NCBI GenBank assembly: GCA_030248295.1 | Contig: JASANH010001726.1 | Location: 1 to 64,000 of the forward strand | DNA from: Mesodorylaimus sp. YZB2_4 | Lineage: Eukaryota; Nematoda; Enoplea; Dorylaimida; Dorylaimidae | Reading direction: 5' to 3' | Length of the DNA stretch: 64,000 nt | Part shown: in pieces, positions 1,697-31,326 of the stretch | Layout: the number at the start of each line of letters is the position of its first letter | Numbering within the stretch: position 1 is the stretch's first letter | The notes under the pieces: generated by a model | What the model was told of the DNA's origin: nothing | Seen by the model: only the letters and a program-made list of their open reading frames with translations | Databases searched by the model: none | Made by a program: the position numbers and the translations under genes

Positions 1697-2532
1697 CTAT
1701 GGTACATACGTGTACAGTAAGCAGTTTGCAGCAGCAGTTTGGTTTCCCTTATCGTTTGCCGCCCAAGTGAACAGTTCGCATCTGGTTGTGCCTGTGTGAA
1801 AATTGAAACTGCGACACCAACTTCGGTTATTGCACTCGACAGAACAGCCAAGAATATTGCTGTCAGAGTGTGTTTGAATGGCGGCTTCTGTGAGGCACGT
1901 GCCTGGTACCAAGGTGTAGTCTTGGTTCGGATCTAAACAAGGACTATGAACAATACAAAAAACTTGAAAATGTAGCGCTTACTGGATACTTGGCACAACT
2001 GCCGCAGAGACGACCCACATGGCCAATCTCCAAATTTCGTGTACGATGTCCACAGGTGTGTACACTGGCCTCCGCGAAATAAACAGTCGTCGTTTATACG
2101 AGTTCTGATCCAAGTGTTCGCGCTAGCCAAGTTTGGATTTGGAGTCGTTGCGTCAGTGTACCAATACGATTGCAGAAAATTATTTTGCAAAAAACAAGGG
2201 GCATTATAATTTTCGCGTTGATGCCCAACCCAAATGAAAGTGTCGCCTCCTTTGCTCTGACGTTTAAAAAGGACTTCACTTAATTAAAACTATATATAGA
2301 CACCCCAAGTTTACAGTACCTACCTTCAAGTAAGCAGTTATCGCGCTCATTTCGCTGGTTGTATGAATTTGGGACATTGTTCCTCCATCCCCCGCGCACA
2401 CATCCCAACTGCCATCCCAGGCTGCTGATTTACTGCCAACGAAATAGCATCTTCCGCCATTCACGACTCCGCCATACTTATTAGCGCAGAAGCTTTTGAA
2501 ATCCGACTTTGCCATACACTCTAGCGAGGTGA
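1697..2532 (-). CDS. C-type lectin + PAN/apple domain protein (copy A, apparently intact)
   Basis: Three exons join in phase on the minus strand: 2532-2324, 2256-1983 and 1932-1697. The first two encode a C-type lectin domain. Exon 1 carries GGRCYF and the conserved Trp/Cys stretch (SWDVCAGDGGTMSQIH). Exon 2 carries FIWVGHQ and ends in the usual second half, GDWPCGSSLRQLCQ. Exon 3 encodes a C-terminal PAN/apple-like domain with CSVECNNRSWCRSFNF, six or more cysteines and a final YTYVP before the stop. The expected phase-1 signal-peptide exon, seen in the paralogues at 27.8 and 31.3 kb, was not found: the best candidate near 2.73 kb hits a stop after about 14 residues. By family knowledge this would be a secreted carbohydrate-binding or adhesive protein. 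The ligand is unknown. The Ca2+-binding EPN/QPD and WND motifs are not evident, so sugar binding is doubtful. Confidence 0.75.
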
Positions 2533-5500
2533 CTGAAAAAGAGGCATAGATTTTTCATGGGCGGGAATATTTAGCATTTTCACCGTACAGACATACTACA
2601 GGGTAAAACGCGGCAAAGAAAGGAGGGCATATACAGAGGTGTGCAGGAGCAGACATACCAGCTCCTGTCCTGTTGGCGAGTTATGATGCCGTCAATAAAA
2701 CTAGAAGATACGACCCGATACTCATTGCAGCAGCTCTCCGAATAGATTACTAATTTTGTTCTTGGCTTTAATACTGCATCCTGTACCTACGTAAGCTTAC
2801 AGGCCTGTCACCTGAAACCAAGGAAACCACATGGACACTAGTTCGTTTTAGGTGTGATCCTCCTGGGTCTTTTGAGAATCCCGATTATCGATAACAAGGT
2901 ATCAACTCGACAATGTGTTCCGAGAACCAGCGGAGGAGGAATAGACCAGGAACTACGTAAATGGCAATGGAAGCCTAGCTAGGCATACGGATGGGCCTGA
3001 TGTCATGTTTTATATGTTTAATACTAGTAAATTCAAAAATTTGTCAGTGTATTTATCGTATGACTAAGCATCATATATGCCGATTGAGAGTTGCATTTAG
3101 CACTATAGCAACACAAACTACAAGCTTTTCGCAGAGTCTCCACATGGAATCTTATAGTAGGTCTTTACACCTTACCGCAATCATAGGAGCGTGGTATACG
3201 TTTTATATACATAAAGCTAGAGTGCTGTTAGAGTGTGTTTGAATATTGCTGCTATGAGCGGCTATAAGTTCCAGCAATTTCAAGGTACATTTTTAAACCA
3301 AAGGGCCTCATTTTAAAGTTAAAAAACTGAATTTCATACATATATTAATGCTGTCATGCTCTAAGCTGTATTCGCATAGAGATGCAAATAAAGCTTACCT
3401 GCTTAAGTTATCTAAAATATACTGTAGGTACATACATTTTCTGTATGGCCTTTATTCTTTGTAGTTTTCTCTAGAGTTGAGATGAATTGACAATTCTGCG
3501 CCTTTATTTATAATCATTCCTTTATTCCACTCCTTCTCAAACACAAAGGTTTACTTCCGCACACTAGCCGTATGAAGCTTTTAGGCAGGCCAAGGCAACA
3601 CACAGGCGGCTTCTGTGAGTCTGGACCTACGTCACCCAGAATACATCAACTAATGCACGTACACCCACCCGGAACCTTTATTATCAGCCAATTTTTCAAT
3701 CGAAGTTCAAATAAAAAATTGGAAGTGACTTGTTCATACATCAGGTCACTTATCTTTTTGATGGACGGAAGAGCTGAACGGGCCAATTCTTTTCCGTCTT
3801 GACTAATCCGCGTTTGCGACCTACTTTACCTATGACCGCCCCAAGTAAGGACTAAGTTACTAGCTCGGATTACACGAATTTCCAATCATCTACAGTTTAA
3901 AAACTGATAAATTAATTCATTATCCAAAAACTTTAGGGAGAATATTTTAAAAAACTGCAGGAAGATTTCAGATATGCTGAGTGGAAGTCTACAACTTACT
4001 TGTTAGTAAGTCAGTCAGAACAAGGCAACCGTAACAGTAGGAAACGGGAGAGCCGTTATGCAAGGTAGGTAAACACAAGTGAGAAACATGCTGGTTCTTG
4101 TATAGTGGAGGAGCAGAATTGTCGGTTCATCTCAACTCTCTAAATTATGCTCTGAATTTTTATCATTCCTAAGTGATCTTCTGTGACGTTGCTTTCTGGG
4201 TTTCAGCGTGACAAGCGCGACAGACTGAAGTCCCTGGTGTACTTCAATATATTCTGTTTCTTTTCAAATAACTTGTAATTCTTGCTTCGAACCTAATTGA
4301 GTTGTTATTGATTCAATGAAACTGGGTGAAGAATTTGATGCTAATGATGGAAGGACCGGTTTGGGGGGGGGGGGGCTTATACCAAATGATGTGTATTCCA
4401 TGAATGTATTCGAGGATGAGTTATCAGTCCAGAATTACAATAAAGAATCAAATCACAGTCCCAGTTACTGTAGGCTTTGAGTCTGTGAGCAAGCCTCTAT
4501 TAGTTGAGTACACGAATTTCTGTAATTATTCCGGATCACACGTGATGATCAGAATTTTTCTGGGGGTGTTTTCTGTGTCCAACCATATAAAGACACGTAT
4601 AGGCTATCGCATCAACTCTACGGGAAGAGAAAGAGGACGTATTCGTTGTATGGACGCCAAAGCACCTATTATTCGGATTCATCGAACAAATCGTGCTGAA
4701 CAAAGCACAGCATCGGCTCAACGTAATTGTTATGATCACGAAATACTACTTGTGCGCACAGCGCAAAAATTAATCATTCGTGATGTCAAACATTCGCTTC
4801 AGCATCTTCTTTAGAAGATTTCTCCTTGATCAGTGGCACATTTCTCAAGCCCGTCCTGTTTTAGAAGAGTTGTAAGCCATATGGAAATCTTGCATGTGAT
4901 AAGCAATCCTTTTCCGTGGCTTTTCTCATATGATGCTTATGTACCTTGCACTAACCTTCTCCCGTTACAAATTTTAAAAACCCTCAAAAAAACCATCTAC
5001 GAAAAAATCAACCCTACGGGATGGTCACTTTCTTTGGTAGATAGACAGTTAATGGTGAATGTGCCAAGCGATAGCTTTTAGATTTTGTTTCTGATCCCTT
5101 CGCTGCATTACAAGACTTGCAATGATGAGAGTTACCGATGAGTTGGCTCTGATGCGAAATAGTGCCTGCTTCAATTGACCGTGAGTATGTGGGCTTTGTA
5201 CGTATATAGGGGAGGTTACAGCAAGAAAAAGTGAACAGCTCGCATGGTAAGTTCAAAGAGGTTGTACATTAATTGGTCAGTCACCACACCTTTATCTTTA
5301 TCGATCATTCAGCTGTTTTAAACAAGACAGCAAAGTATCAAGCAGAACTAATGGGCCACTGTGAAGAGCTAGGATCCAATAAGTCAATCGCTGCTTATCT
5401 GTTATCCCTAAGCAATTGGTAGGCGTAAGGTGCAACCCGATCAGACAGACAAGTAGCTAAGTCCTTCAGGAAACCATGATCTGATTTAGGATGTGCCATT

Positions 5501-5836
5501 TGACTGGTAATCAAAGATCGCTAAGTTCATCCCCACTAATAGCTGAGCTTACTTGAACTCGGGATGAAAAACCTACCGTAAACGAGACGAATATTGATCA
5601 TGTCCCAGCACATTTTTCTCACACATCCATCACATTAATGGCAAACTGCAGAGAACCCGTTCCACGCCAATACTACACCCTGTTATTGGAGCAACGATTT
5701 CAAATTCCGCAGTTTCTCCATTCCAATTTAACAGTACAATCTATGAAACGAAACATATACTAGCAGAAAACTTGACATCGCTTAACAGTCTTGATGCAGA
5801 CTCTCAATACAGAATTAATGGAAACCAGAATTAATA
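2533..5836. other. intergenic, no gene recognised
   Basis: No exon with family similarity and good splice context was found. A run of 13 G lies at 4363-4375. Open frames such as 4404-4814 (136 codons) have no hydrophobic, cysteine or repeat pattern and read like chance frames. The missing first exon of the lectin-PAN gene probably lies in the left part. Confidence 0.5.
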
Positions 5837-8413
5837 TCACAATCCCGACTCCAACTTCTCCACCGACTTCAGGACCTGACCTGTCCTGACAACGGGAATA
5901 CTCCTTACTCGACCTGCGCTAGCCATGGTCGATACCCTCGGTAAGGAAGCGGTGGATGCTGATAATCGTCGGAATGTGGCAGGTGTGGGTGGTCTCGCAT
6001 AATTGCCATCATAATCGGCCAAAGATTTTGCAGCAACTAATCTGATCGGGACAACTCTTTCGTTACCATTGTGAATATCGATTGGGCTCGTGGTGGCGGG
6101 CAAAAATGAGGGTTTAGTCCATAGACGACGGAACTTTGAGTCGATAGGGACGGATTTCGTGGACACGACATCATCGTGGAGACCAAAAGCAGGAGACAAG
6201 TATGTGGCGTCCATTACTGGAATATTTCCGTTGACATCTGCACATTTTTTGCATTCTAACGACGGTGGTTGAGACTTGGGACGAGGACTTGGTGTGCGAC
6301 TCAGTAGTTGGCGGGGATAGATGATAGCCATCTTTTTATTTGATGGCTTCAGTTGAAGAAACCCGGCCAATTTACTAGATGATTTTCCATTAGAGCGCGA
6401 TCCAAGATGCCCCGATGTGCCATTGAGTGGTTGGGAGGATGACGTGGGCTTAACGCAAGCGTACGCCGCTGGCTTGAGCTCCGCCTTTTCCTCGTTTGTC
6501 TGTTCCCTGTCATGTGCCGCAAGTTTCTTTTCCATTTCTTCATTTTTATGTTTGCCTTGTCCAATTGTTAGGCCATCTTTAATGGCAGACATTGCTCGAA
6601 GAACAGCTGGCACTGTCCTCGTTGGCAAAGGCGCTGAGCTGTTTTTAGACATTGGAGGCTTTCCGTTAGCTTCATTTAAACTGGGAGTGGAAATCTTGGC
6701 CAGATTTCCCGCAGGAGTGTTTGCTGACTCCAAATTTTCCAACTCACTAAACGTCTGCAACATATACGTGCTAGATCAATAACGCAACAATAACGTGCTA
6801 GATCCACTGTACTTTCAAGGCTTATTGTTAGCTTTAAAACGTACCTTGCTGATCATTTCTGCCATGTACCCTTTACTGTCTTTCGATCTTAGGATTCTCA
6901 TAGCGTTATCCAAAGCGACTAAATAATTTTCATCGATCGGCGATACCAAGGCATTTTTGAAAAGCGGCATAAGCTTGCATAATTTCATCCTAAAAATGCA
7001 ACTTCGCAAAATCCCTTTCAAAAGAACCTACCAAATGTTTTAGAATTTCAGTGACTTTATACAATGTTTTAGATTTAGTTATCCTGCCATTTTGCTCAAA
7101 CTTTCAAAAGTTTAACGATGGTTCAAAACATTTTTTTTCTTGCAGCGAAAAACTTGCTCACCTGACATTTAGCACGGTATCGCTAGCCAATTCCATAGCG
7201 CACAAGAATAGATGATGTTTGAAAAAGCTTTTTGACATAAGCTCAATTGACATTTCGCATGAATCCAAGAATAGGACTCGTTTATGGCAACTGCGATTGT
7301 GAGCAAGACTGTCCTTGCAAAAATTCGCAGTGCATTGTGCCTCTTTCGACGATTTTATTTCTCCAGTCCACTTCAATAGTACCCTCAAGGCTGCAAGTCG
7401 ACATGGTAAAGCTCGCTGAAAGTATCAGGATCACTTGTACCACACATAAATCAGTTCTAAAATGTCTGAAATTTAACCTTAGTAGCCCTAAAGTAGGTCC
7501 AGTTCCGTTGCATTAAAATGACTGAACTACTTACAGCTGCTAATACTTCGTCTTTGATCATCGGTATGAAAATTTGGCACAGCTCGTCATTGGAGAAGAA
7601 TCGACACAAACAAGAAAATGCCAACAGTAGCTGTTCGTGGGTACGCCATTGACTTCCATTTCGAGTAAGGCGATTGCATGTGAGTAGGGCACGTATCATA
7701 CGAGCATGGGCTGGGTGGAACTAGAAGAGAAAGCTTAAACAATTTTTAACATGTGCAGATATAGTGTACCTGAGGGCAAAAGTTTCTGCAGGCTTTTTCT
7801 CCAACTCCATCACTTGGCGATCCATTTCCATAAATGCAGTCGAGAATTTCTTCCAAGCGACAAGCCAGATGGCTTATGACTTCTACATCGCCCGTATAGG
7901 ACAAATCGATAAACGAGTCGATAATTAAAGGGGGGTCGTGTTTGAGCGAGCGAGCAAATTCATGAAACACGGCCGCCACATGGACTCGTACATTGCCCTC
8001 TGGTTCGCGACATAGACGTTTAAAATGAGGAAGTAAAAATTCTTTCATCAAATTATCTTTGTTCGACGAAGAAGACAATTGCGTTGAGAGCTGAAAATAA
8101 TTAAACGCGCATTCAAACCTTCACTCACGAGGCATAGCACCGACTGAGTGTGTGAGTGGCTGAAAGAATCACGAGGTACTAACCGTCTTACATGGCTGCT
8201 TTTCGTTGGAACTTGCGCACTTTAGGCAGAAAATTGTAAAATCACGCCCACCAACTAGTTCAAGCACCAAAATACAAAAACCTCTTTTCATCGCTCCTGT
8301 CAAAACAGGTGCACACTTACGTGGAAGTTCGACACATCCTGCCCTCGCCGATGGCGCGCACTTGGCCAAGCATATTGAACCATATCGACGGCAGCTGCTA
8401 GTTTTCCAGCCAT
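5837..8413 (-). CDS. PPP4R4: PP4 regulatory subunit 4-like HEAT-repeat protein (5' end missing)
   Basis: Six exons join in phase on the minus strand: 8413-8321, 8090-7770, 7720-7535, 7415-7162, 6989-6845 and 6754-5837. The protein starts with helical HEAT-type repeats (for example HFKRLCREPEGNVRVHVAAV and RALPCRLAALRVLL). It has the A-subunit-like signature LASDTVLNVRMKLCKLMP, which matches my recollection of the vertebrate PPP4R4 core. The last exon (306 codons including the stop) is a Ser/Pro/Lys-rich, probably disordered tail, as in that family. Such subunits scaffold the PP4 catalytic phosphatase, mostly in the cytoplasm. Exons for the N-terminal repeats should lie above 8.4 kb but were not identified. 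The 8413-8321 exon is the least certain: it is accepted because its phase fits and it starts after a CTCTAG acceptor, but another open frame overlaps it. Family call fairly sure, orthology less so. Confidence 0.72.
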
Positions 8414-9727
8414 CTAGAGCACGAATGGGAATCGCCAATTCCGGAATGACCAAAGAGATCTGACGTTCTAATTCGAAAATCAAACGTTTCACAATCGCAC
8501 CCGACAGCAAAAATGTCAAAGTTGCGCCACGGCTTTTTTTAATTTCCCGCCAATTATAAATTACGACTTCTGAATGCACCGATGGATAACAAGACCATAT
8601 TTTGGCGTCTGGCGCTCTCTAAAATGAAAAAATTCGACATCGACAATACATTTTCTAGTTTATAGTATTTTGAAATGCAGCGAATAATTGGCGATTAGGC
8701 CCTTATGTTTGCCCATTCGCATTCCACTCAGGGTTGTTTCCAGATCAAGACGCTACCAATGACGACTGACCTAGATTTCCTTTTCGCCAAAACTGGACAT
8801 ATTAGGATAGTGGACGACTTTCAGCACAATACTGGCTAGGTAGATTCTTTAGTTACAATAGAAACTTTTGAATGATGCTGCAAAGTTTGAGTTTTTCGTC
8901 CTGCCAGCCTTGACAATTTTCTGCAATCAACTTTCATTGTTGATATTCGCAAGGACATATAGGCTGGGTAAGAAAAGGTAAAAACGATCATAGCTGTCTT
9001 ATGTACCTTGTATGGCCACAGATAATTCTTCGACTTTGCTTGCTCCTACGCCACACTCGAGTAGGGATCTAAAAAAAAGTAAAGTGAAAGCGGGAATGAT
9101 GATGATGAGACTTTAAAAATAGACTCGAAGGAGAGGGCGGAAAACAACAATTTTCTGACGTGCTATGGGATTTAACTAAGCGCATTGAGATTCGAGGCTA
9201 GCTCTACCGTTTTTGATGCTTTGCTACTGTGGCGTCAATCGAGAATTAGAATTTTAAATTACATTTACAATGGCGTGGCGTCCGCATTCACCATATGCCA
9301 TTGATTTTTGCTTTGTTATAAAGCAGAAGCACAAGAAGCGCATTTAGTTGCACGATGACCAGGAAAAATGCCATCGAGCTAAGAGTTGGGTTCGGCTTTT
9401 AGAATAGTCTGCCTGCTTTAGCTTGCCTTTATAAAATTATAATGAATAGAAAAGCATTGAATCGCTAAAAGATCAAGAGGATGGGCAATAATTGCACTAA
9501 CGCATTTTATCCACTTTGTAATTCTGTTTTGTGCTAAAAAAGGAAGTCAAAGCAACAAGAACATGCTTTCTTTAAAATAGATCACACAAAATTTTTCATA
9601 GAATTCAATATTTCAAGTTGAGGCAGTAGGACTATACATTTTGAATATTTAGTACATAAAAGTAGAACTACGCAGAGTACTGCACAATACACATCTTTGT
9701 TTAGTCATCATAGCTCCCTATTGGTGA
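8414..9727. other. probable 5' region or introns of the PPP4R4-like gene
   Basis: A 136-codon minus-strand frame (8579-8169) extends open up to a plausible acceptor at about 8618, but its phase does not fit the downstream exons. It could be an upstream exon broken by one base, or a chance frame. The remainder is AT-rich with no recognised exon. Confidence 0.35.
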
Positions 9728-10081
9728 GTTGGCGGGAGCCGGAGTGAGGTCACGAGCGATAAAGAGAGATCAATTCTCTGTATCTGGCCACGATCGTCAA
9801 AGCGTCATAATGTTTCGCCTAACTATCATAATCTTACCACGCAATCCTCTTTAGCTTCCAGCTCGCCTGCAGTCTTCCAGCAGAAGCTAGTCAAGAATCT
9901 TCCAAGTGACTTGGGCCATCCCATTTCTACAAAGATCCTCAATCAAGAAATAGGAAAAGCATCTCTAAAACCTAAAGTGGAAAAAGTTCTAGGCAAGAGT
10001 AATGGTTTTGTGACAAAGCCAACTCTCCTTCTATATCGACCAATAGCTCGAAAAAGTGTCCCTGAATCGATCTTCCTCACC
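9728..10081 (+). other. possible coding exon of unknown gene
   Basis: An open frame of about 117 codons without an ATG runs from just after a TGA to a TAG. Its composition is unlike the flanks: Ser/Lys/Pro-rich, with a patch around LGKSNGFVTKPTLLLYRPIA. CTCTTTAG at about 9852 or CCTGCAG at about 9871 could be an acceptor for a terminal exon. No domain is recognised and no partner exon was found. Chance cannot be excluded. Confidence 0.2.
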
Positions 10082-10448
10082 TAGCTCTGCGTTTAACAAA
10101 TGTTGGCAATCAGTCTGACCCCATGCAGCTGTGAAAACATACGCAAAAATAATATAGTTCAAGGGCGGAGGAAAATATTTTGCAACCATAGATTCTCGTT
10201 GAGCTTGACAACAACTAACGCTGCTTGGCACGTGTGTAAAATGAGTGGTAAAAGCATACAGCTTGTTACTCGGATAGGTACTCCTTATTTCCCAATCCCC
10301 TTTGTGCCTATTATAAGCTAACAAAGTATTGTGAGACTGGACAGAGACTAACGGTAAAAATTATTTTGGTTGTCAGTTGTCCAAAGAAATTCCAAGCAGT
10401 TTTTGAGAACGTCTTATTTTCCGTCTTAGTTTCGATTAGCATATTTCT

Positions 10449-10497
10449 ATGTCTGCCTCGAAAAAGCTGAAAAAATTAACCGGCTCCTCAGTTCAAG
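10449..10497 (+). other. possible first exon of the 12.2-kb gene
   Basis: ATG followed by 15 further codons (MSASKKLKKLTGSSVQ) ends in a phase-1 donor (CAAG then GTAAAC). The exon at 12239 begins in the matching phase, so the two could be spliced across a 1.7-kb intron. This rests on phase alone. Confidence 0.2.
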
Positions 10498-12569: not shown

Positions 12570-12708
12570 GTACAGCATGGTAAAACCAATGGTTCTTGTT
12601 GCAGTAGGCACAGTTACAGTACGTCAGTAATTTTGAAGATATACAGTACGTAGATGCACAGTGGGGGGCGTGGTAAACTTGAAAAAGATAACTCTTAGGC
12701 GATATAGC

Positions 12709-15587: not shown

Positions 15588-17228
15588 ATGAAATCACTGG
15601 CTCTCTGCCTTGCAATCATTAATTTCCTGTCACTGGTCGGATTTGGAGATGGTATGACAGTTCCTTTGAGGAGGAAACGAACACCAACTGGAAAGTATGT
15701 GAAATGTGTTGTCTGTGCTGGTGAGCTGACTGTGATCGGACAATATACACTGAACTTAACGGACTCCTTGCAGACTCAACTAGCCCTTCCACGTCTTCAC
15801 TCTTCAACTCTCACCCTTGCTCCAAAAATGCAGGATAACCCCGGTCTTTAGTGGCTCATACCCAGCTGTAAGACCTCTACCACAAGTACAGGCAGAGATG
15901 CAGCAGTGCCACTAATGGGGTACACATGCGCCGAGGCACGCAGATCTGTATGACCCTCTGTGGGGGGATAGTATGTTCTTGTGGAAGAGTATTTCAGCAA
16001 AGTTTCCTCCTTCAATTCTTCTGATTTCAAGTGATCTTGGCTTGTCTTGTTTTGAAACATCAATTGATAAAATATACGCCTGCAAGAGGTTGAAAAAAGT
16101 GGACATTTGGTTTAACAGCGTGTCACAACTTCATCCGAAAACTTTTTACATTGTTTCAGACACCACCGAACACTATGCGCTGTTGATATTGTAAAAACTG
16201 CGGACGGAACAGGAAAGCAAGGATTTTGCAATATTCACGATTACTTTTACATTGCTCCAATATATATCGGCACACCACGCCAGACGGTGTGGGTTCAGTT
16301 TGATACAGGTTCAGCTGATACTTGGGTCTCGTCGAAAGAATGCCGAAGTTTAAGTTGTCGTCAAGCGGAGCGTTTCGACACCCGCGCCTCGCAATCTTTC
16401 GAGCGTGTGGGCCGTACAAGATTCAAGTTCGTTTATGGTCTTGGCGATACTGTACGTGGCTACCACGCGCGTGATCGAGTCTGCGTGGGCTCGTTGTGTA
16501 TGCCGAATCAAGACATTGGTATCGCCACCTTGGTCACTGACGATGATCTAGTCATCGATGGATTGATGGGATTCGCTTATCAGGCACTATCAGTTTTCGA
16601 TCGCCCTGTTCTTGTGACTTTGAAAAGTGTCCTAACGTCACCCATCTTTGCCGTATGGTTAAATCGAGACACAGCCGTTGGGACTGAAGGTGGAGAAATG
16701 ACCTTAGGCTATACTGATAGCAGCCGATATGTGGGTAACCTTGATTATATCCCCGTGGTGAATCAATCCTACTGGACGGTGCGTTTGACAAATGTTCTTG
16801 CCGTGGAGAACAATGGGGTATCGACAAGCGTGGGCTGCTTCGGACGACAGTGCAGAGCTGTATTAGACACAGGAACCAGTTTTATCTTGGGGGCGCATAA
16901 TGAAACAGCAAAAATTTTGGATGATTGGAACAGGAAAGGTTGGATTTATCGTGACTCTGATCGTAAATGGAGTGTCACATGTCAACAAATGTCATCTCTG
17001 CCAAATTTGAATTTTATATTAGGCGGGAAAACATTTACTTTAACGCCTCATCAGTATACATTTCCTGAAGAAGCGGATCGACAATGCGATCGAAAGCTTG
17101 CTATTGATGGCGATGTTCCTGACTTGCCATTTTGGGTATTGGGTGATGCTTTTCTCGGCGCTTACTATACAGTATATGATTTCGGGCAACATCGTGTGGG
17201 TCTGGCAAAATCGAAAACATCAAGTTGA
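15588..17228 (+). CDS. secreted aspartic protease (pepsin / cathepsin D family, A1)
   Basis: Two exons, 15588-15694 and 16160-17228, join in phase 2 to give 391 residues. Residues 1-22 (MKSLALCLAIINFLSLVGF and on) are a signal peptide. A basic RRKR patch follows, then a short pro-region rather than the usual 40-50-residue propeptide. The mature enzyme starts near DYFYIAPIYIGTPRQT. Both catalytic aspartates are present: FDTGSADTWV in the N-lobe and VLDTGTSFILGA in the C-lobe. The flap reads VYGLGDTVRGY, keeping its Tyr. The C-terminal FWVLGDAFLGAYYTVYDFG matches the family. Likely an endoprotease of the gut, lysosome or secretions. The annotated ATG is preferred over an in-frame GTG three codons upstream. 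AATAAA lies 105 bp past the stop. Confidence 0.93.
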
Positions 17229-19993: not shown

Positions 19994-22473
19994 ATGCGAG
20001 CGTTGTACCGCATATTAGCACTGACTTTTTGTCTCGTCGTTATTTCCTGCATTTTTGGCGACTTTGGGACATTGTTTCAAGTCAAAACTAAAGTAGAAGA
20101 TTTTTTTCGAGACGAAAAGGTGAGTTCGAGTGGTCAGCAAATTTCGAAAATAATAGCTGGCGTGGTGCATGACGTGAAGCAAACGTTAAAAACAGAGCAG
20201 TGATAAGGAGGTGTTAGGAGCTACGGGTGTACGTAGTGGTTGTGAGTATCGAGTATTCTGATATTCGTTGCCTGCAATATGCTTTTGCTGACGATTACTA
20301 TGGGTTACAGCCCCAGATTTTCGAGATGTCGGGGCCGCGGTGGAGAGCTTTCGTCTATCGTTATTGCCGGGTAGCAAGTGCCGGGGATCGTCTTTGGTTC
20401 AATCCCCGGTTAGGCGGGCATTGAACCCAGGATTGAACCTCCAGGGTACCGGGTGAATCCCCCACGCGTGAATGATTCACCCGGTACCCTGGAGGTGCTA
20501 CGAGTGGAAAAGACGGGCCAAGCAAGTAGCCCGCAAAGGCGGGGCAAGCAAGACAATCTCGGGTGTCGAACCTTACAGGATTCACCCGCTATCGTCGGCG
20601 GAAGCTGGCGCCCTATCCCGGACGCCCTCGTGTGGAGGTGCTCCTTGTGAAAACCCACAGAGGGACGCCGCTGCGTGTGCTGGTCCCTGCACAACCTTGC
20701 CAGAAGGGTTGAATGATAGTCGGGTATAGGCAAACTCGGCTTGAGCCCAAAGCCCAAAGCTCTCATTCTGCGCTGAAACTTGAATTATGTCGGTTTCTGG
20801 TAGGAAAGCGACCCTCTAATGGAGTGATAGCTGGTGGAGTTTTCAGGCTTATTAGAAGGCTTACTGCTAGGGTTTTGATGTTGTAAAAATTCAGTCAGAC
20901 TGGCTGCGCAGGATCGAAAAGATTTTAGCCAGATTCTGAAAAAAAAATGGATGGCTTGGGCTTGGTTCCACATCGCCCTTGGATTTATATCTAATTCTAT
21001 TTCTTGTCATCAGCTGGACATACGTATATTTTGGATAAGCAGGCTCAAGACATGTTTATACTCACTACATAATCCCCTAAAAACGTGGCCTAGTCGGGAT
21101 GGTGAGGCGGATTTAGCGTCATCTCGACGCCTCATCACATCTTCTACGTGATTGTACTGACCTATGCGAGTAAATGCTTTTGTTTTGGGGCACACTGGCT
21201 GTTTTTAGTGCGCAGTTCTACGAGTCAATTTTCACACCTCAAAAAGGGCTTTCCTGGTCCGGTTCCGGTCCAGTCTCTGTGATATCATGCAGCCCCAGGG
21301 CAGCAAGTCAAGATTCCCACACCTTCAGAGAATCTGATATTTCAGGATAGAAATCCAAGTGTCAAGGTGATGGCTAGTTCTCTCGTATCTACTCAATCAC
21401 TCGTCCACTTGGAGGGTGGCACTCAAGAACCAAATGCCACCCCCATAGATACTAGTTCAACAGAAGTTCATGTGCTCGTCTGGACCAGGTGGTGGTGGCC
21501 AGTACCTAATGGTCAGTTGACAGAGTGTAAAACATCCAAGTGCTACCTGACCAGTGACAGGACCTTGCAAAAACAAAGCAACGCTGTTGTGTTCCACTCG
21601 CGCACAATGGATTGGGACGATTTACCCACACACAGAGACCAAGATCAAAACTACGTATTTTCTAATTATGAGCCACCTTATCGGACAGGAGGTGACTTTA
21701 CAGCAGATTGGAAGACGCATTATTTCAATATGACAATGACTTATCGTCGCGACTCCGATGTGCACGCCCCTTACGGTATTATTCAAAACCGACGCTCGCC
21801 CTTGAGATTCGATTTAAAAGAATTGGCTGCTAAAAAAACCAAACTGGCTGCTTGGATGGTAGGCAATTGCCACACCCCTGATGGGAGAGAAGTTTTAGTA
21901 GAAGAGCTGCAAAAGCAAATCACAGTCGATGTTTATGGGAATTGTGGTGCATTAAAATGCGACAAGGATAACACGGCCTTCAATAATCCATCGACGTGTG
22001 GTTCAATATTCGAGCGAAACTATAAGTTCTACTTTTCATTCGAAAATCACATGTGCCGCGATTATGTCTCAGAAAAATTCTTTCTTCGTCTCCAACGTTA
22101 TCTGGTGCCTGTTGTATTGGAACGTAAAAATTTTGTGCACTTTTGCCCGGAATACGAGAAACCATGGTTCATCGCAGTCGATGATTTCAAAAGCATCACA
22201 AAGTTAGCTGACTATTTGAAATATTTGCACAAAAATTCAACCGCTTATTACGAATATCTAAGCTGGCACGAGCACTACGAGACCGTGGTCTATTTGAACT
22301 CGGACACGAATACTTTGACCAATAATCATTGGTGTGAGCTGTGTGCCGCTTTAGCGGAGAAAAAGCAAGGGAAGATGACTGGAAAGAACATCATGGAATG
22401 GTGGCGAAAAGATGCTTGTGACGTCACAAACAAATTATTCCACGATTACATTTGGACATGCAAATTCTGTTAG
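19994..22473 (+). CDS. alpha-1,3-fucosyltransferase (GT10)
   Basis: Two exons, 19994-20119 and 21346-22473, join in phase 0 to give 417 residues. Exon 1 encodes a short basic N-terminus and a single signal anchor (MRALYRILALTFCLVVISC), typical of a type II Golgi membrane enzyme. Exon 2 encodes the stem and catalytic domain with GT10 features: HAPYGIIQ, AWMVGNCHTPDGR, ITVDVYGNCG, the acceptor/donor motif YKFYFSFENHMCRDYVSEKF, LVPVVL and FIAVDDF. It transfers fucose from GDP-fucose to GlcNAc of glycans; the exact linkage is inferred from family only. Length is usual for invertebrate FUTs. The C-terminus is Cys-rich (NNHWCELCAAL, WTCKFC). The 1.2-kb intron holds a SINE copy with an internal palindrome. 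AATAAA lies about 78 bp past the stop. Confidence 0.93.
20325..20735 (+). mobile_element. tRNA-headed SINE-like repeat, copy 1
   Basis: The head carries an A-box-like CGCGGTGGAGAGC and a B-box-like TGGTTCAATCCCC. The body (AGGTGCTACGAGTGG, GACGCCCTCGTGTGGAGGTG, GTGCTGGTCCCTGCACAACC) is homologous to the copy at 47.2-47.5 kb on the opposite strand. It sits inside the fucosyltransferase intron. Its middle contains a perfect 22-bp inverted repeat not found in the other copy. Confidence 0.7.
20437..20496. repeat. perfect 22-bp inverted repeat in SINE copy
   Basis: Arms 20437-20458 and 20475-20496 are exact reverse complements around a 16-nt spacer containing ACGCGT. The arms include GGTACC. It looks like an inverted duplication inside the SINE body. 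Confidence 0.85.
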
Positions 22474-22550
22474 CCTCGTGACTTGCGGCCAAGTGAACAT
22501 CGGTAATGTCAAGCGGACTGTCGTGCGAGCATCCGTCGACTGTCCCAACA

Positions 22551-22556
22551 AATAAA
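22551..22556 (+). promoter_or_regulatory. polyadenylation signal of the fucosyltransferase gene
   Basis: AATAAA 78 bp after the stop codon on the coding strand. Confidence 0.55.
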
Positions 22557-24069
22557 TTTGCGTATAACAGTTTTGCAATGATTTTCTTTATATGTCTGGC
22601 AGCTTTTTCATACGCAAAGGCGGCCCACTCAACAGTATCGCTCATTGGATCCGTAATCATGTGTCAGGCAGGAGTCTTCAAATGAAGTACGCAAATGTGA
22701 CTTTGATAGCCTTCTTGTGCAACTACCGCAAAGACTGCACGGATGAAATTTATTCGCGGGGTAAAACTTTGCGGTTTTTGATCGCCCAGGAAACTTTTAC
22801 CTCACTGAAGTTTGTGTGTTCCTTCATAAGAACACGACAGGCTTGAATTCGTGATTCCATGCCATAATAAATGACTAATGCACAGTTTTGCTATTATTAC
22901 AGTAATCTAGGCGACAAAAAGCGGTAAGGGGCTATCCATAAAGGACTTTAACAGCTAGGAGAGATTTTGAGCTAAATCGGGCAGGATTCGGCGAGGGTCC
23001 GCTTCTGATCATGTGAAAAAAGCATCTTTCGACTATGTCACCTTATTGATACAAATAAATCAATAATTTGATGGTGCTATGCAAAAACGAGTCAACTGCA
23101 ATTTTTTTCGCAAAATAAGATAACTGACTAGTGAATAGAGCGCACACGAAAGCGAGTTACTTCTTTGGCGGAGTAGGACATTTGGATTACGATCCTGTGA
23201 TAATCAACAAGTACCTAAATATTCGCAATATCCTGAAAGTGCCAGCAAAAATGAGTCAGCTGACATTAAAGGACATATGTCGGCCTGTTTGAACAAGTTA
23301 GGTGGCCGCAAAGGTCATAAGTTAGTGTACCCGCCCATTGTTTTCACGGCTACACCCTATTGTTCTCTGCCTCTGCGTGTTCATAATCAATAAGGCGCAG
23401 CGGTCGTGATGCGATGCCTGGCTTATGAAGGCCTGCCCAAATCTTGTACCTCCTCTAACATAAGTAGTAGGTCAACAGTTCAAGCTACATGCTAAAGAAA
23501 ACGTTGAGCTTTCGAACGTCGACAGCATTTTGAAGGTCGACCGCATAAAATCTCGATTTTTTGACCCCCCCTCTCCCCCTGACCGCATGCCGACCATTTC
23601 TCGTGAACCCCCCCCCCCCCCCCCCCTCAAAAATCGTGGCTGGGTGAAGTATGGCTGGGTGGTCGACCACTCCAGCCATACCCCCACCTTCCGAACGCTG
23701 TTTTGTGGAATGTTTCATCTTATGCTTTCTTGAGCTTGACAAGGTGTCCTCTCCCTTGAAGACAAATCTTTTTTTGATTCATGGAGCGGATTTCTATTTT
23801 GTAAAAGCCTTTACAAACTTTTCCCACAAGTTTCCCCCTTTTTAAAAAAAGTTTTGCGGGTTGGGGCGCGCCAGGACTTTCAATCATATTATCTGGCCAG
23901 CAGTCATGATATGATAAGCGAGGCTGTGAGGTGACTAGGGATAGGCCGATCCTGATCCTGTCATTGAGGCATCGGGATTCTGCTAATAATCATGATACGC
24001 ATAAGCATGGTACACTCTGATCCGTCATATCTGCAACGAAGAGGCAACGGCCGAAATTAAAAAATTTTT
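22557..24069. other. intergenic, low-complexity
   Basis: Contains a run of 19 C (23608-23626). A near-palindrome around GTGGTCGACCAC lies at about 23649-23681, with GTATGGCTGG on one side and its complement on the other. No supported gene. Confidence 0.45.
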
Positions 24070-24202
24070 CTGTACATCAAGCACCGACCAGTTAGCCAGA
24101 CGCCTTTAATATTTTACACAGCTTTTTTTTGCACCTAGGAACATTTTACAAGTTTTGGTTTTCCAAAGTTCGACTTAACGGCTGGCGATGTTCCCTTGTA
24201 AG
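24070..24202. mobile_element. foldback / MITE-like element, half copy
   Basis: Matches only the right arm of the elements at 12.7 and 60.7 kb: GACCAGTTAGCCAGACGCC through GGCTGGCGATGTTCCCTTGT. The left arm and centre are missing. It abuts a tRNA-headed repeat on its right. Confidence 0.75.
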
Positions 24203-24204
24203 CT

Positions 24205-24432
24205 TGGGACCTTCCCGACTGGTGTTCGAGGACAGTTTCCCAATTCTCTGCTCCTTGGGAGGGCGTCCGCCATTTGACAGTTGCAGGGGTGCCGCCCGTA
24301 GCCAGGTGTCCAAAGCCAGGGAAAAGCTACTAAACTGCCGTCCTCCGTCGGAATAGAACCTCGGCCTTCCAGTCAGGGTTGCGGGCCAGGAAGGCGGATC
24401 AACGCCTTAACCAGCTTAGCCGTTTGAAAATT
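24205..24432 (-). mobile_element. tRNA-headed SINE-like repeat, copy 3
   Basis: Read on the minus strand from about 24432 it begins with an A-box-like GGCTAAGCTGGTTAAGGCG. A paired GGCG/CGCC anticodon-like stem and a B-box-like GAGGTTCTATTCCGAC follow. The body shares GGACGCCCTC with copies 1 and 2 but otherwise differs, suggesting a related subfamily. Extra bases between the boxes argue against a functional tRNA. Confidence 0.5.
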
Positions 24433-25072
24433 TGCTGCGTTCGACCATTGGCCGCTACCCCTCCCCCTCCCCCGACCGCAGCTGACCACTTTTTGCTAGC
24501 CCCCTCCCCCCTAGGCAGCGGTCGACCTCTATGGATGGCCCCTAGTCGGCTTTTAAGGAAATCTTGATAAATCAGCAATACATCGAGAAGAACGTTAGTC
24601 AAGATTGACGGCAACAAGTATATTCTGATTCTTGCAATTATGGATCTGACCATCATGATTTTTTCCAACGTAGTTCCTCAGACTCGTCAAGCCGGAGTGG
24701 CAGTGGCCAAGAACATGAGGAGTATTTGCCTGATGTCTGACACCTATCAAGGAGAGAATGTAAGCCCGCTCAATCGCAGCAAAGTCCATGGGAACGCCAA
24801 TGGATTTAATAAAAGTCAAAGAATCCCGTCAAAGACTCAAGAGTGAACATTTTTTTTCATTAAGCACATAAATGAACAATACAGGTTCATCGATTTCGAA
24901 CAAGGGTGACTCTCATTGCAGCATCAACGGCAGCATATTACAGAATATATGCATAGCCGTATATACAGTATAACAGTTATACAAAACTGTGCAAGCAGGC
25001 AGAAGCAGTCATATATTAATTAGTGCAATGGTGCGGGTAGGGAGAGCAGGACTGTGCAGACAAATATTGCTT

Positions 25073-27881
25073 CTATGGATTGTAAGTATAATGCCAGCAT
25101 CCGCTCACCTTTTTCATGTAAGGGTTGTCGCGCGCCGACCAAGAAAACAAGTCACATTTCCTGATACAGCCTTCATCGAAGAAGTTCAGACTGCGACACC
25201 ATTGCACAGTGCTACAGTACGCGGAGCATTCGTCCAATGTGACATTAGCGTAAGACGCTACGACCGGCTCAAGCATGCAGGTATTTGGAAAGTATGTGAA
25301 AGATTGATTGGGATCTGAAACAAAACAAACTCTTGAGCCTGGAACGCATGCAGATTGGAAAAATATTACAGATTAAAACGCATAATACGTATGACTCGAG
25401 CGTGCAATCCCAATCGGCTACGAGAGTCTTGTTATCCCACATGTATAGCTAAATAGAACAGCAAATGTAGAGAGTTGAGAGCTACGAAGAATAGCAGTTC
25501 TGAGCGTAGTAACCGCTGACATGCCTACGCATCCACTACAGCATGCGCCTGTTACCAGGAGGCTCATACTGTAGTCTTTGTTGTTGGTTGTTAAAAGATA
25601 CCTTGGTTGTTAAAAGAAATAATATGGATATCGCAAAAGATATGGGTATGGATAGGACTTTGATATCGATGTGTTAAATGATATTGGCATCGATTAGACG
25701 TAGATATAGATATCGACTAGATAAAGATATAGATATCGATTAGATAAAGATATAGATATCGATTAGATAAAGATATAGATATCGATTAGATAAAGATATA
25801 GATATCGATTAGATAAAGATATAGATATCGATTAGATAAAGATATAGATATCGATTAGATAAAGATATAGATATCGATTAGATAAAGATATAGATATCGA
25901 TTAGATAAAGATATAGATATCGATTAGATAAAGATAATAGATATCGATTAGATAAAAGATATAGATATCGATTAGATAAAGATATAGATATCGATTAGAT
26001 AAAGATATAGATATCGATTAGATAAAGATATAGATATCGATTAGATAAAGATATAGATATCGATTAGATAAAGATATAGATATCGATTAGATAAAGATAT
26101 AGATATCGATTAGATAAAGATATAGATATCGATTAGATAAAGATATAGATATCGATTAGATAAAGATATAGATATCGATTAGATAAAGATATAGATATCG
26201 ATTAGATAAAGATATAGATATCGATTAGATAAAGATATAGATATCGATTAGATAAAGATATAGATATCGATTAGATATAGATAGAGATATTGTATTTATA
26301 TCAACGATATCTGCCACACTCTAAATTAAGTTCACTTCAGGTCTATAACCTTTTATTGCCATTGCTCGAGTATTCCTTATGCGACAGAATACAACAACCA
26401 GCGTTTGTCACACTGTCGCACAGAGAACTCAAGTAGGTGAAAGCACTGTAGAGTAGAAAGGTATTGGTAGATGCAAAGGACGGCATAGAAAATCAATCGC
26501 CATAAATATTTAACCCCGAGAGCTATTATTTCAAATAGGTTGGAGGCGAGAAAATTATTCAAGCGAAAACTTAGGAGAAGAAAATTGAAATGTACAACAC
26601 ATTTTGAAATTAAAATTTTCCTAAATACCCGCCTAACCTTTCTCGAAATCAGCTGAACACCCGGAATTCACTCAAGGAACATATTTTCTCGCCATTTCCA
26701 TCTTAAACAGAATGGCTGGGTGTCCATGGGCTTGGCTTTACCTCAGAAAGTGCAACTTAGCTAATCCCTATCTTCCTATACTACATAGGTCAGAAATTAC
26801 CACTATTTAGACAATCCTAGGAGGTGGAATTTCGCCAACCGCTGTGGAAGGTTTTTCGTAATCTTGAAGGAAGAACCTGCGATCAGCTCAAATCAAATTT
26901 TCGTTTCATCTCATCAGAAATTAGCTAGGTCTCCTTGCTCTCTATTATCTCCCTATTTTTTGTCAAAATATTTATAAAAGTTTAAATTCATATCAAGCCA
27001 AAGCACCAACGTTCTAGAGCTCCCCGCTAGTAAGAAAAGAGTGTTCGTAAAGAAGCCTTGCATTAAAAAACATTTGCTTACACTAAGGCACACTCCAAAG
27101 TTTCTGTCGCAGTCGTCGAAATGTCGTTTTTTAATCCATGTTTTATCGCCCGACAAGTTTGGATTGATAGTCGAGGCATCCGTGTTCCAATGGGTTTTTG
27201 CAGTCCCGAGAAAGCAGTCTGTCGGACCCACACTTAAATCATGCGAACCACCGATAAACGCAAAATCGAGTTGCTTAAACTTTGACTAAAAAGCCAGGTA
27301 CAAGATTAGAGTGATAAAATTTTTAAAGGACCCTATCGAGCATTTACTGGCCAAGATTGTGTGATCTTTGCATATTCATCGCTTGTATGGACATGAGCTA
27401 ATTCTCCTCCATAGCTGGCGCAAAGTGGCCACGCGTTGGCCCAAGTCGCGTTTTTGTTTGGAATGAAGAAACAACGGGCTCCATTCCGGACTCCATTCAA
27501 GTCTTGGCATGAGAGTGTGAAATTGTATGCGGGATCGTAACACGTGGCTCCTGTTAGCAGAAAAAGAGATGATTCTCACTGCTTCCTAGTTGTGACCCTG
27601 TTTATATAGCACATCACTAAACGCTCAAGGATGATGGGGCGCGTTATAGGAAATGTTATGTTACATATACTGGGGGTCGAACACTAGCCGGCAGTGGCAC
27701 TTGACGTGGAAGCCAAAAAACCCCTCTGACCATGGTCCGGAACCAACTGATGGCTCACTCAACACACAACAGGCTCACGCTTACCGGTCGAGCCTTATCT
27801 AAACTGTTTAGGTTGAGGTTTACCTTGGGCATGCTTTTCCATGAGAGCAGCAAATATGATGCAGAGCCAAAACCGTGCCAT
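25073..27881 (-). CDS. C-type lectin + PAN/apple domain protein (copy B)
   Basis: Minus-strand exons: 27881-27824 (signal peptide MARFWLCIIFAALMEKHAQG, phase-1 donor), 27550-27348 and 27285-27082 (C-type lectin domain: CYDPAYNFTLSCQDL, NGARCFF, ATWANAWPLC, then HWNTDAS and NPNLSGDKTWI), and 25314-25073 (PAN domain: TLDECSAYCSTVQWCRSLNF, CDLFSWSARDNP, ending HYTYNP). Exon sizes and phases match copies A and C. The last part of the lectin domain (the W..C...CQ segment present in copy A) was not found after 27082. It may lie on an unrecognised exon or be lost. The intron before the PAN exon contains a 600-bp 23-mer satellite. Predicted secreted. Function probably recognition or adhesion, inferred from domains only. 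Confidence 0.65.
25690..26290. repeat. 23-bp satellite array
   Basis: About 26 nearly identical tandem copies of GATATAGATATCGATTAGAT plus AAA (23 bp). Only two units with single-base insertions occur near 25930-25960, and degenerate units flank both ends. It lies in the intron upstream of the PAN exon of copy B. The high identity implies recent expansion or strong homogenisation. Confidence 0.97.
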
Positions 27882-28492
27882 CTTGACCCGGCTACAGCGC
27901 AATAAGGTATGTAGGCAGGGGATGTGTACAAGGAAAGCATTCAGGGCTCTACTCGATAGAGCATGCCTGAAAGACTTTCTTATGCTTGTTCTTCGACGAA
28001 CTGTTCTGTTTATCACCAAGCTACTAGCTTGTTAAATATGCTCACTATAATCTTGGACATGCTTGTTGCCCTGGTTCAATGCGTGGGCCTAGTGACCTGC
28101 TCTTCTCTACCATGGTCCGCTCTCCTGAAAATTACACCTGCCAAATCAAACAATACGTGGGCAACGAGGGGGACGTGGGATGCCCCAATAGAGCCCATGT
28201 GTTGCTCAGCAACCAAAAACCGTTTCAAAGTGATGCCTACTGGACGGCGAGTGAACGCATAAGCAATTGCAGAGCCTAAGTCAGATATGCACTAGTAACC
28301 AGGGAGCCTTTTCCATGTTTTCTTAGTGAGACAGCCATAATTATCGACGCTTCTTGAGTCAAACCGTGTCAAACACTAACAGAACTGCAGGTGTTTTTCG
28401 AAATAGGAACTTGGCGCTCGTTGGAGCGCAATAGTCAAGTCTTTTGTATATTTCCACGTGGTTTTAAAGGGTCGCGGAAAGTCAGACATAAC

Positions 28493-28627
28493 AAGATCAG
28501 CGAATAGTACCCATCGAGCAATGTCAAATTCCAGTGGGGAAAATATTCCAGCTGGGCATCTCAAGAGTAGAATTTTTCCCATCGGAGTTTGACATTGCTA
28601 CGTATATGGTTCCTATTCGCTGATCTT
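28493..28627. repeat. imperfect foldback, ~52-bp arms
   Basis: AAGATCAGCGAATAG at the left is answered by CTATTCGCTGATCTT at the right. The inner arm segments (AGCAATGTCAAA / TTTGACATTGCT and GGGGAAAAT / AATTTTTCCC) also pair. The spacer is about 26 nt. It sits upstream of copy B of the lectin-PAN gene. Confidence 0.8.
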
Positions 28628-30397
28628 AAAATCTCTGACGTGTCCATGGCCCTTGAACAGGAGACTGTGCGAAATCTAGCCTTTCTCCTTACCCACAGGC
28701 TTGACAGACAAGAATATGTTAGAATTTAACTGGGCTCCACTTTTTTGGAAATGAATTATATTGGGCGTGGGTATATAGAATGTCCAACAGTTCTGCTCAG
28801 TTGGTGTTTGCCAACTACGTAGTATAAATAGACAAAGCTGTCAGTTGGGTATAAAAATTTTGTTGTCATATCAATATGTCACAGAAATTTATCAAATGTC
28901 ACTCGCACATATTGAGCACAGATTTTTTGTTTTTCTGAGCTTCCCAAATAGTAATTGCAGCTCTGTTTCGTCGCGTCATTACAATAATCGCCAACCCAAT
29001 GCCCTTAGCAATCTATGCAATCAATAAAATGTTCCACTACTTTCTCAGCCAGACGTGACAGCAAGGCGTGCAACAGATGCAACAACACAAAATCATAATC
29101 GTGCATAATCAATTCGATGAAATGATGTGAGTCTATGGATCATAGGTGTAATGAAAAAATCCGCTGGTCACACTCATAGACGGGTTGTCGCGAGCTGACC
29201 AAAAAAAAGTTCGCAATTTCCTCTGCACCCTTGGTCCCAAAAGTTGACACTGCGACACCATTGCACGCTGCTGCAGTATGTCGAGCAGCTGTCCAGCGTG
29301 ACATTGAGGTAAGATGCTACGACTGCTTCGCGCATGCAGGTATTCGGAAAGTATGTGTAAGATTGACTCGGATCTGAAAAAGATTTTTGTACCTCCATTA
29401 CTGGCATACATGAAATGTTATGTTATAAAAGCTTCCAGACTGAAACGCATAATACGTATGATTCGAGGGGGCAACCCCAATCGGCGACGTATGTCTCGCT
29501 GTCCCACATGTACATCTAAAATTAGCAGCACTTGCGATTTTTATACTTGCAAAAATTTTGGGTTGGAGCAAACTCATCTTCATCCTCATCCTCTAAATGT
29601 GCCCAAGGAATTTCATTGTAATCTGGCTGTTTTTTTTACTTCTCTAAGTTGTCCAAGTTTTCAAAAAATCATTTTGATCCGTTCAGTGATATATCGGGGC
29701 GCAAAAAAAGGTGTTGAAAGCATGTCTCTTAGACTAGTCAGCAAATGGGCAATGACTGGAACCTATTTCTTGATGTCTTCCTTGATATTTGCCTTCACGA
29801 TTGCGTTATCGAGAAAATATGTCCTACTTCCTCAAATAAGACCCCGGACGATTTTTCTTATTCTTTTACCAAGTCAAGGGAGCATAGTCGAGCATTCCAG
29901 GTGTGCCCGCCCAGCCAGATATGTCTGCTGAAACAAATACTACAATGTCAAATCTTACAAGCCCTGTTCCAACAAAGAGATGTCAATCTAAAGTCATCAT
30001 ATTTACCCACTAAAGGACAAAAAGGCAGAAGTTTCATTAAAAAATTAGCTAACACAAGGAAAAGGGGCCCTGCAAGGCCCACTCCCTTCTGACTCGTAGA
30101 AAATCGCTCACAGGTTACACGTCCATGCTTTTATGAAAACTTGTGAGTTTATGAACCTATATCTCTCATAAGTCTCTTAACATTCGGAAATGCCGATGGC
30201 TTATTTTGGACTTGTGGACTTGTAACTTGGTGAGACCTGGCCCAGATGTAATTCGTACCTATTTCAAGGTTAGTATTCATTTAGATTGTTTTCTAAAGTC
30301 GCATAAAAGGGACTTCGCGAAAACATATTCAGAGAATATTTTGAGGGAGTTCGCATTTTAAAGGAAGACAACAATCAGGCTTTCTAGCGCTTCCGAG

Positions 30398-30448
30398 TCG
30401 ATAAAAGATCAGGTAAGAGCGTCAAGCTCTTACCTGATCTTTTATCGA
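30398..30448. repeat. perfect 23-bp hairpin, 5-nt loop
   Basis: Arms 30398-30420 and 30426-30448 are exact complements (CGATAAAAGATCAGGTAAGAGC and its complement) with loop GTCAA. No T-run or GC-rich base typical of a terminator. It lies in the region between the surviving exons of the dead lectin-PAN copy. Confidence 0.93.
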
Positions 30449-30849
30449 TCTGCTGAAGACATTATCTCAGTTCCGTCACAGTCAGACTGACATGTCGAAT
30501 CAGACTAACTGGCAGTCGAGCGGCCAGGATCTTTGATCACGGCAATGATTTCAAAAAATGAATTGTACGCCCTTCAGTACAGTACGTTTTTGTCACACCA
30601 GGATCTGGTGACTCGAAACCAACAATTATCGTATCGCCGGTGGCTTAAATACGCTGTGCCGACCGATGCTCACGATGACTAATAAGGCTGGCCCCAAGTG
30701 GATAAGTGGTTTTTGGATTAGATTCGAAAAAAAGGTCAACCTCCACAATCCAAAACCACTCTGTCTAAAAACCTAAGCCAAACCAGCCCAAAAACCCCAA
30801 AAAATTGGTTGGATTTTGAGACCCAATGTCGGACCTGGCAAATAACTGA

Positions 30850-30906
30850 ACCTACACTGATGCACAGTCCTGCGACAAAAGCACAGGACTGTGCATCAGT
30901 GTAGGT
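30850..30906. repeat. perfect 23-bp hairpin, 11-nt loop
   Basis: Arms 30850-30872 and 30884-30906 are exact complements (core CACTGATGCACAGTCCTG). The loop is CGACAAAAGCA. It directly abuts the intron remnant where the second lectin exon of copy C should begin. Confidence 0.93.
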
Positions 30907-31326
30907 CCACATTGACTTTGACTAAAAACAATTGAGTATAAGATTGAGAGGGAAAATTCTAAAAGGACTCTCGTCGAGTTCTTACTGGCCAAGACTGTGC
31001 GATCTTTGCATATTCATCGCTTGTGAACATGAGCCAGTGCTCCTCCATAACCGCCGCAAAGTTGCCACGCGTTGGCCCAAGTCGCTTTCTTTCTTGGAAT
31101 GAAGAAACAACGAGCTCCATTCCGGACTCCATTCAGCTCTTGGCATGAGAGTGTGAAATTGTGAGCGGGATCGTAACAAGCAGCTCCTGGAAAGAGTGAG
31201 ATCGAAATGTTTGTTACTCCCTCAAACAGACACCGATAGGCCCCTGAAACTCTCTGGTTGTGTCTTACCTTGGGCATGCTTGTTCTGAAGAGAAGCAAGT
31301 ATGACAAAAAGAAAGAGCTGCGTCAT

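What the first reader, a model, noticed from the sequence alone, without database searches (positions are those of the whole stretch)
1697..31326. CTLD + PAN/apple gene family with three copies in different states
Copies at 1.7-2.5, 25.1-27.9 and 29.1-31.3 kb share exon phases and domain order (lectin, then C-terminal PAN; B and C also keep matching signal-peptide exons). I do not know a named family with exactly this two-domain build. Cysteines are conserved but the classical Ca2+/sugar motifs are not evident, so the ligand may not be a sugar.
Basis: partly seen in the sequence, partly recalled or inferred. Interest (0 to 1): 0.7.

Follow-up and report, generated by a model that had tools for sequence, protein, structure and literature searches.

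The report
Large nematode CTLD-PAN secreted protein family
This stretch of a roundworm genome holds two apparently whole genes and one dead gene of a large family of probably secreted proteins that join a lectin-like domain to an apple (PAN) domain; the pairing of such domains is known in roundworms, but this version and its size are unusual.

Summary
On the minus strand, copies A (2656-1697) and B (27881-25073) are SP-CTLD-PAN genes without stops or frameshifts; intron phases are 1-0-1 (B has one extra phase-0 intron). A's signal exon is a candidate only. Copy C (31326-29133) is a pseudogene: two frameshifts, one exon gone. PAN scores above Pfam's cut-off; the CTLD falls below it, but a family profile finds solved CTLDs readily. 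Lectin and PAN exons most likely form one gene: of 193 PAN places in the genome lists, 103 have a CTLD within 3 kb upstream on the same strand, against 10, 2 and 3 for the other arrangements. So this is a repertoire of about a hundred pairs (redundant contigs not removed) on 48 contigs, not three copies; A's sister among 17 members compared is on another contig. The genome is a nematode's (133 cuticle-collagen hits). Nematode CTLD+PAN is in print (class IV, CTLD+CW/PAN-3, 16 in C. elegans); this one uses PAN_1. EPN/QPD/WND are absent in 14 of 14 members aligned. PAN is conserved while the ligand half of the CTLD changes faster, which fits secreted recognition proteins with a constant tail; that function is inferred. 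Verdict: new variant of a known kind.

The parts
2584..2656 (-). Copy A candidate signal-peptide exon (24 aa, ends in phase 1)
   Evidence: Most hydrophobic of the ATG-to-phase-1-donor exons found between 2533 and 5800 (12-residue mean 1.88); no similar exon in the 300 bp fetched upstream of the C70 sister
2324..2532 (-). Copy A CTLD-N exon
1983..2256 (-). Copy A CTLD-C exon (undivided, unlike B)
1697..1932 (-). Copy A PAN exon with stop
   Evidence: PAN_1 32.2 bits
27824..27881 (-). Copy B signal-peptide exon
   Evidence: no signal-peptide predictor was run
27348..27550 (-). Copy B CTLD-N exon
27082..27285 (-). Copy B CTLD-C exon, first part
25449..27081 (-). Intron inside CTLD-C, seen in B and (acceptor side) C; holds 27 copies of a 23-bp tandem repeat; a 759-bp part outside the repeat has no other match in the genome
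   Evidence: the models without frameshift have one undivided exon here
25370..25448 (-). Copy B CTLD-C exon, second part
25073..25314 (-). Copy B PAN exon with stop
   Evidence: PAN_1 28.1 bits
31269..31326 (-). Copy C signal-peptide exon
30986..31186 (-). Copy C CTLD-N exon, frameshifted
29516..30985 (-). Copy C stretch where B's first CTLD-C exon would lie: that exon was not found; inverted repeats lie here
29437..29515 (-). Copy C CTLD-C exon, second part
29133..29373 (-). Copy C PAN exon, frameshifted

Best explanation
A and B are two members of a large nematode family of small, probably secreted proteins: signal peptide, one long-form C-type lectin-like domain without the classical calcium/sugar triplets, one C-terminal six-cysteine PAN/apple domain. 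Shown: gene structure, linkage of the two domains by counts, family size (rough), lack of the sugar triplets, no strongly hydrophobic stretch after the signal, purifying selection on PAN, faster change in the ligand half of the CTLD. Inferred: the proteins are released into gut lumen, pseudocoelom or cuticle surface; the changing CTLD face binds varied ligands (most likely microbial or protein ligands), and the constant PAN domain docks to a common partner or to other copies, much as other nematode CTLD proteins are thought to serve immunity. C is a dead tandem copy of B.
For: One gene: 103 of 193 PAN places have a CTLD within 3 kb 5' on the same strand, on 48 contigs, against 10 (3' same strand), 2 and 3 (opposite strand); A's CTLD-PAN intron is 50 bp; the joint before the PAN exon is phase 1 in 22 of 23 models with a PAN exon (25 loci of which six are three genes seen twice). 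Domains: PAN_1 in 7 of 7 members scanned, Lectin_C in 5 of 7 at E<=1, best 2.7e-4; the family profile hits 168 distinct PDB sequences at E<=1, best 4.5e-22, and nearly all of the 60 shown are CTLD proteins. Six PAN cysteines in 14 of 14 members; seven CTLD cysteine columns in 12-14 of 14. No EPN/QPD/WND at the ligand loop in 14 of 14; only the Asp of WND is kept. Selection: dN of CTLD-C above dN of PAN in 10 of 10 pairs with both exons, omega 0.19-0.45 against 0.06-0.19; PAN identity above CTLD-C identity in 89 of 91 pairs. Most hydrophobic 19-residue window after residue 30 is 1.27 (B) and 0.42 (A). Nematode: 133 Col_cuticle_N matches. Immune role by analogy: the majority of C. elegans clec genes are upregulated on pathogen exposure (PMC8051790, passages).
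Against: No expression, binding or phenotype data, and no transcripts. No omega above 1 in any of 15 pairs, so diversifying selection is not shown; faster CTLD-C change may be mere relaxation. Pfam Lectin_C is not reached by B and only 12.8 bits in A (cut-off 22.6); B alone against PDB gave at best E 0.012. No structure supports the folds: the one PAN prediction had mean pLDDT 51. The signal exon of A is a guess; in B the most hydrophobic 19-residue window lies at 163, not in the signal. Counts include likely redundant contigs.
Confidence: 0.5

Rival explanations
1. Secreted structural, digestive-tract or surface-coat proteins (mucus, cuticle, egg coat) that bind the worm's own glycoproteins; diversity reflects tissue or stage use rather than recognition of foreign matter.
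For: Missing calcium/sugar triplets and purifying selection overall fit binding of constant partners as well; PAN domains also occur in nematode ZP-type matrix proteins (recalled).
Against: Family size of about a hundred pairs and the faster ligand half of the CTLD are more usual for recognition of varied ligands (general knowledge, not tested).
Confidence: 0.25
2. Secreted proteins that act on a host, if the nematode is a parasite: released lectin-like proteins that engage host surfaces.
For: C-type lectins and a PAN-domain protein are among Ascaris suum excretory-secretory products (PMC3789772, passages).
Against: The species and its life style are unknown. Large CTLD sets go with free-living species and Steinernema rather than most parasites (PMC5297725 section 8).
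Confidence: 0.15
3. Lectin and PAN exons are separate neighbouring genes and the pairing is a local accident.
For: No transcript was available; 90 of 193 PAN places and 93 of 204 CTLD places have no partner found within 3 kb, some being other PAN or lectin genes or missed exons; these were not sorted.
Against: 103 against 10/2/3 for the four arrangements; recurring phase-1 joint; 50-bp intron in A; a 325-aa frame open through both domains at C168 and C803.
Confidence: 0.02

Closest known systems
C. elegans CTLD class IV (1-2 CTLD + 1-2 CW, CW = PAN-3)
   Same: Nematode proteins that combine a CTLD with a PAN-type module; 16 in C. elegans, 0 in six other nematodes tabulated (PMC5297725 Table 2, seen as a passage).
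   Different: Here the PAN module is PAN_1, not PAN_3 (PAN_3 reached E 0.6 in 1 of 7 members; no match in this genome at E<=0.001, where no control genome rang either). PAN is C-terminal; recalled, not checked: CW precedes the CTLD in C. elegans. About a hundred pairs instead of 16.
C. elegans CTLD + CUB proteins (CLEC-4, CLEC-41) and single-CTLD clec proteins
   Same: Greatly multiplied nematode CTLD proteins, many with a second extracellular domain; recombinant CLEC-4 bound neither the tested bacteria nor the arrayed glycans (PMC8051790, passages).
   Different: Second domain is PAN, not CUB; no functional data here.
Mermaid of Laxus oneistus (DC-SIGN-like symbiont lectin)
   Same: Secreted nematode CTLD (PMC3294214, passages).
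   Different: Mermaid is a Ca2+-dependent sugar binder; this family lacks the triplets of that site and has a PAN domain.

Membership tests
Nematode CTLD class IV (CTLD + CW/PAN-3) | At least one CTLD | tested here: met
   Family profile against PDB: 168 distinct sequences at E<=1, nearly all of the 60 shown CTLD proteins
Nematode CTLD class IV (CTLD + CW/PAN-3) | CW = PAN_3 module | tested here: not met
   PAN_3 E 0.6 in 1 of 7 members, PAN_1 in 7 of 7; 0 PAN_3 matches in the genome, without a positive control
PAN/apple (PAN_1) domain | Pfam score above 21.4 bits | tested here: met
   B 28.1, A 32.2, C piece 23.9 bits
PAN/apple (PAN_1) domain | Six conserved cysteines | tested here: met
   Six columns with Cys in 14 of 14 members
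PAN/apple (PAN_1) domain | Apple fold | tested here: inconclusive
   One AlphaFold model from 2 sequences, mean pLDDT 51.1; no fold search made
C-type lectin-like domain | Pfam Lectin_C above cut-off | tested here: not met
   B no match, A 12.8 bits against 22.6; 5 of 7 members match at E<=1, best 2.7e-4
C-type lectin-like domain | Four core cysteines plus the N-terminal pair of long forms | tested here: met
   Seven conserved Cys columns, 12-14 of 14; assignment to C1-C4 and the N-terminal pair by position is mine
Calcium-dependent sugar-binding C-type lectin | EPN or QPD and WND | tested here: not met
   0 of 14; the Asp of WND is kept in 14 of 14
Calcium-dependent sugar-binding C-type lectin | Sugar binding | not testable with these tools
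   needs protein

The most novel reading that the evidence does not exclude
A nematode lineage has built, independently of the C. elegans CW class, a germline repertoire of about a hundred secreted CTLD-PAN_1 proteins with a constant PAN tail and a fast-changing CTLD ligand half, exons being exchanged between copies by gene conversion: a constant/variable recognition set comparable in plan with snail FREPs or amphioxus VCBPs (both recalled).
Probability: 0.3. Interest if true: 0.6.

Novelty: new variant of a known kind. Interest (0 to 1): 0.4.

Why it matters
Nematodes lack antibodies (recalled), and what their many lectin-like proteins recognise is largely open. A pairing of CTLD with a PAN module other than the C. 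elegans one, multiplied to about a hundred and with uneven rates in its two domains, gives a defined set in which to test whether the CTLD half is the variable recognition part and the PAN half the common handle. The classical sugar triplets are absent, which agrees with the published finding that only a small part of nematode CTLDs keeps the residues thought essential for sugar binding (PMC5297725 abstract).

Tried and rejected
Two-gene reading rejected. Sugar-lectin reading rejected on motifs. A transposon origin of B's extra intron: 759 bp of it match nothing else in the genome, so not supported; that search skips very common words. A motif scan of eight other lectin loci printed nothing and is uninformative. 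A weak Toxin_30 match of A (12.2 bits, cut-off 24.5) is below threshold and was not pursued. Rfam: no match in the window at gathering scores. Papers: nine searches answered; no title or abstract start listed named a nematode CTLD-PAN_1 expansion, which is not proof that none is in print. The PAN structure model was too poor to compare.

Lists were cut by the tool, and each search scores only about 150 candidates. Near-identical contig pairs (C168/C803, 98.8% over 1301 bases; C477/C592 and C741/C829 with equal scores) are probably haplotypes or overlaps, so 103 is not a clean gene count. The query was an open frame that probably includes translated introns. Several models of the second subfamily (L026, L030, L034, L035, L036) show a further short gap of about 35-150 bp in CTLD-N that the aligner reads as an intron; models with frameshifts have unreliable joints. 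The aligner is my own script and its intron calls were not checked by transcripts. An earlier count gave about 50 hits for the C21 array; the count is 38.
Full report
What is there. The window is the first 64 kb of contig C41 of a 145-Mb genome in 1067 contigs. Its 133 matches to the nematode cuticle-collagen N-terminal domain make it a nematode by established knowledge of that family; the species is unknown. On the minus strand lie three copies of one kind of gene. B (27881-25073) is whole: five exons, 261 residues, GT donors and AG acceptors. A (2656-1697) is whole in its CTLD and PAN exons and has a likely signal exon 51 bp upstream; a sister gene on C70 shows no such exon within the 300 bp fetched. 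C (31326-29133) is dead: frameshifts in its CTLD-N and PAN exons, and the first CTLD-C exon not found. So the three states are intact, apparently intact and pseudogene.

Domains. The C-terminal domain is PAN_1 above the curated cut-off in all three copies (for C a 65-aa piece), with six cysteines in 14 of 14 aligned family members. The lectin assignment is weaker by single sequences: Pfam Lectin_C misses B and gives A 12.8 bits (cut-off 22.6), and B alone finds solved structures only at E 0.012 or worse. A profile of seven members settles it: 168 distinct PDB sequences at E<=1, led by Lymphocyte antigen 75 and the PLA2 receptor, with mannose receptor 2, CLEC2 proteins and tetranectin following. 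Most matches cover the N-terminal half with the 'W..A...C..GG.LA.IH...E' pattern. The calcium/sugar triplets are absent in 14 of 14; where WND should be there is G/A-D in 13 members and E-D in L044, so only the Asp survives. After the signal no 19-residue window exceeds 1.27, so a membrane helix is unlikely and secretion is the likely fate (inferred; no predictor run).

One gene, and a large family. This gives 193 PAN places and 204 CTLD places; 103 of 193 PAN places have a CTLD within 3 kb upstream on the same strand, on 48 contigs; the other three arrangements give 10, 2 and 3. The 10 are what tandem arrays would give. In 22 of 23 models with a PAN exon the joint before it is phase 1 (the exception, L022, is frameshifted; six of the loci are three genes seen twice). 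The number is a rough one: search lists are cut, and some contigs look like second haplotypes. 90 PAN and 93 CTLD places are unpaired; they were not sorted further. Models of a second subfamily (L026, L030, L034-L036) show a further short gap in CTLD-N, so exon plans are not identical throughout.

Relations. In a tree of 17 members (C not included) A pairs with C70 (support 99/98); B falls weakly with the C12 group (85/88); a second subfamily of five is separate (100/99). B and C are the only close pair in the window (81% in CTLD-N, 71% in the PAN piece). B alone among models without frameshifts has an intron inside CTLD-C (27081-25449), of which C keeps the acceptor side; the others have one undivided exon there. 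I read it as an intron gained before B and C split. A 759-bp part of it matches nothing else in the genome.

How it may work. In six related members, five of them with a PAN exon, the CTLD-C exon changes faster than PAN: dN higher in 10 of 10 pairs, omega 0.19-0.45 against 0.06-0.19. Across 14 members PAN identity exceeds CTLD-C identity in 89 of 91 pairs (means 0.40 and 0.27; CTLD-N 0.39). No pair shows omega above 1. The simplest working model is a secreted molecule whose CTLD-C face meets varied ligands while PAN binds something common. By analogy with C. elegans clec genes, the majority of which are upregulated on pathogen exposure (PMC8051790, passages), an immune or gut-lumen role is likeliest; this step is inference, about 0.5.

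Exon histories. Between B and C, synonymous change is 11 of 44 sites in CTLD-N and 30 of 46 in PAN (rounded; Fisher p = 1.5e-4). A patchwork of this kind points to gene conversion or exon exchange, though one pair is thin evidence and the Nei-Gojobori counts are rough.

Known or new. PMC5297725 (abstract, section 8 and search passages read; [quoted passage not shown] elegans, none in six others. The present family fails the PAN-3 feature, so it is not filed there; it is built on a like plan. Nine paper searches listed no title or abstract start on a nematode CTLD-PAN_1 expansion, but most subscription papers are not held. I therefore call it a new variant of a known kind, of moderate interest.

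Noticed in passing
window 25449-27081: Intron present in B and C, inside an exon that is undivided in the other models without frameshift; carries 27 copies of a 23-bp tandem repeat (25662-26290).
   Followed up: partly
window 31186-30986 and 27550-27348 against 29373-29133 and 25314-25073: B and C differ in synonymous divergence by exon (11 of 44 against 30 of 46 sites), suggesting gene conversion.
   Followed up: partly
window 30398-30448 and 30847-30909: Perfect 23-nt and 96% 26-nt inverted repeats where copy C lost an exon.
   Followed up: no
G000:C21:899552-951506: Dense array of 38 other Lectin_C hits, all on the plus strand (counted in the list).
   Followed up: no
window 16116-17225 and 21283-22470, plus strand: Long open frames for an aspartyl protease (Asp, E 7.6e-70) and a family-10 fucosyltransferase (E 2.6e-50) between copies A and B.
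   Followed up: no
window 44528-44926 (+), 45437-46522 (+), 49728-50354 (-), 61827-63635 (-): Calmodulin-binding domain as in SK-type channels, a reverse transcriptase (RVT_1), a ligand-gated channel subunit and a sodium/calcium exchanger.
   Followed up: no
window 1-642, minus strand: Ser/Thr/Gln-rich open frame over a 48-bp tandem repeat, with a hydrophobic start by eye, running off the contig end; no Pfam match.
   Followed up: no
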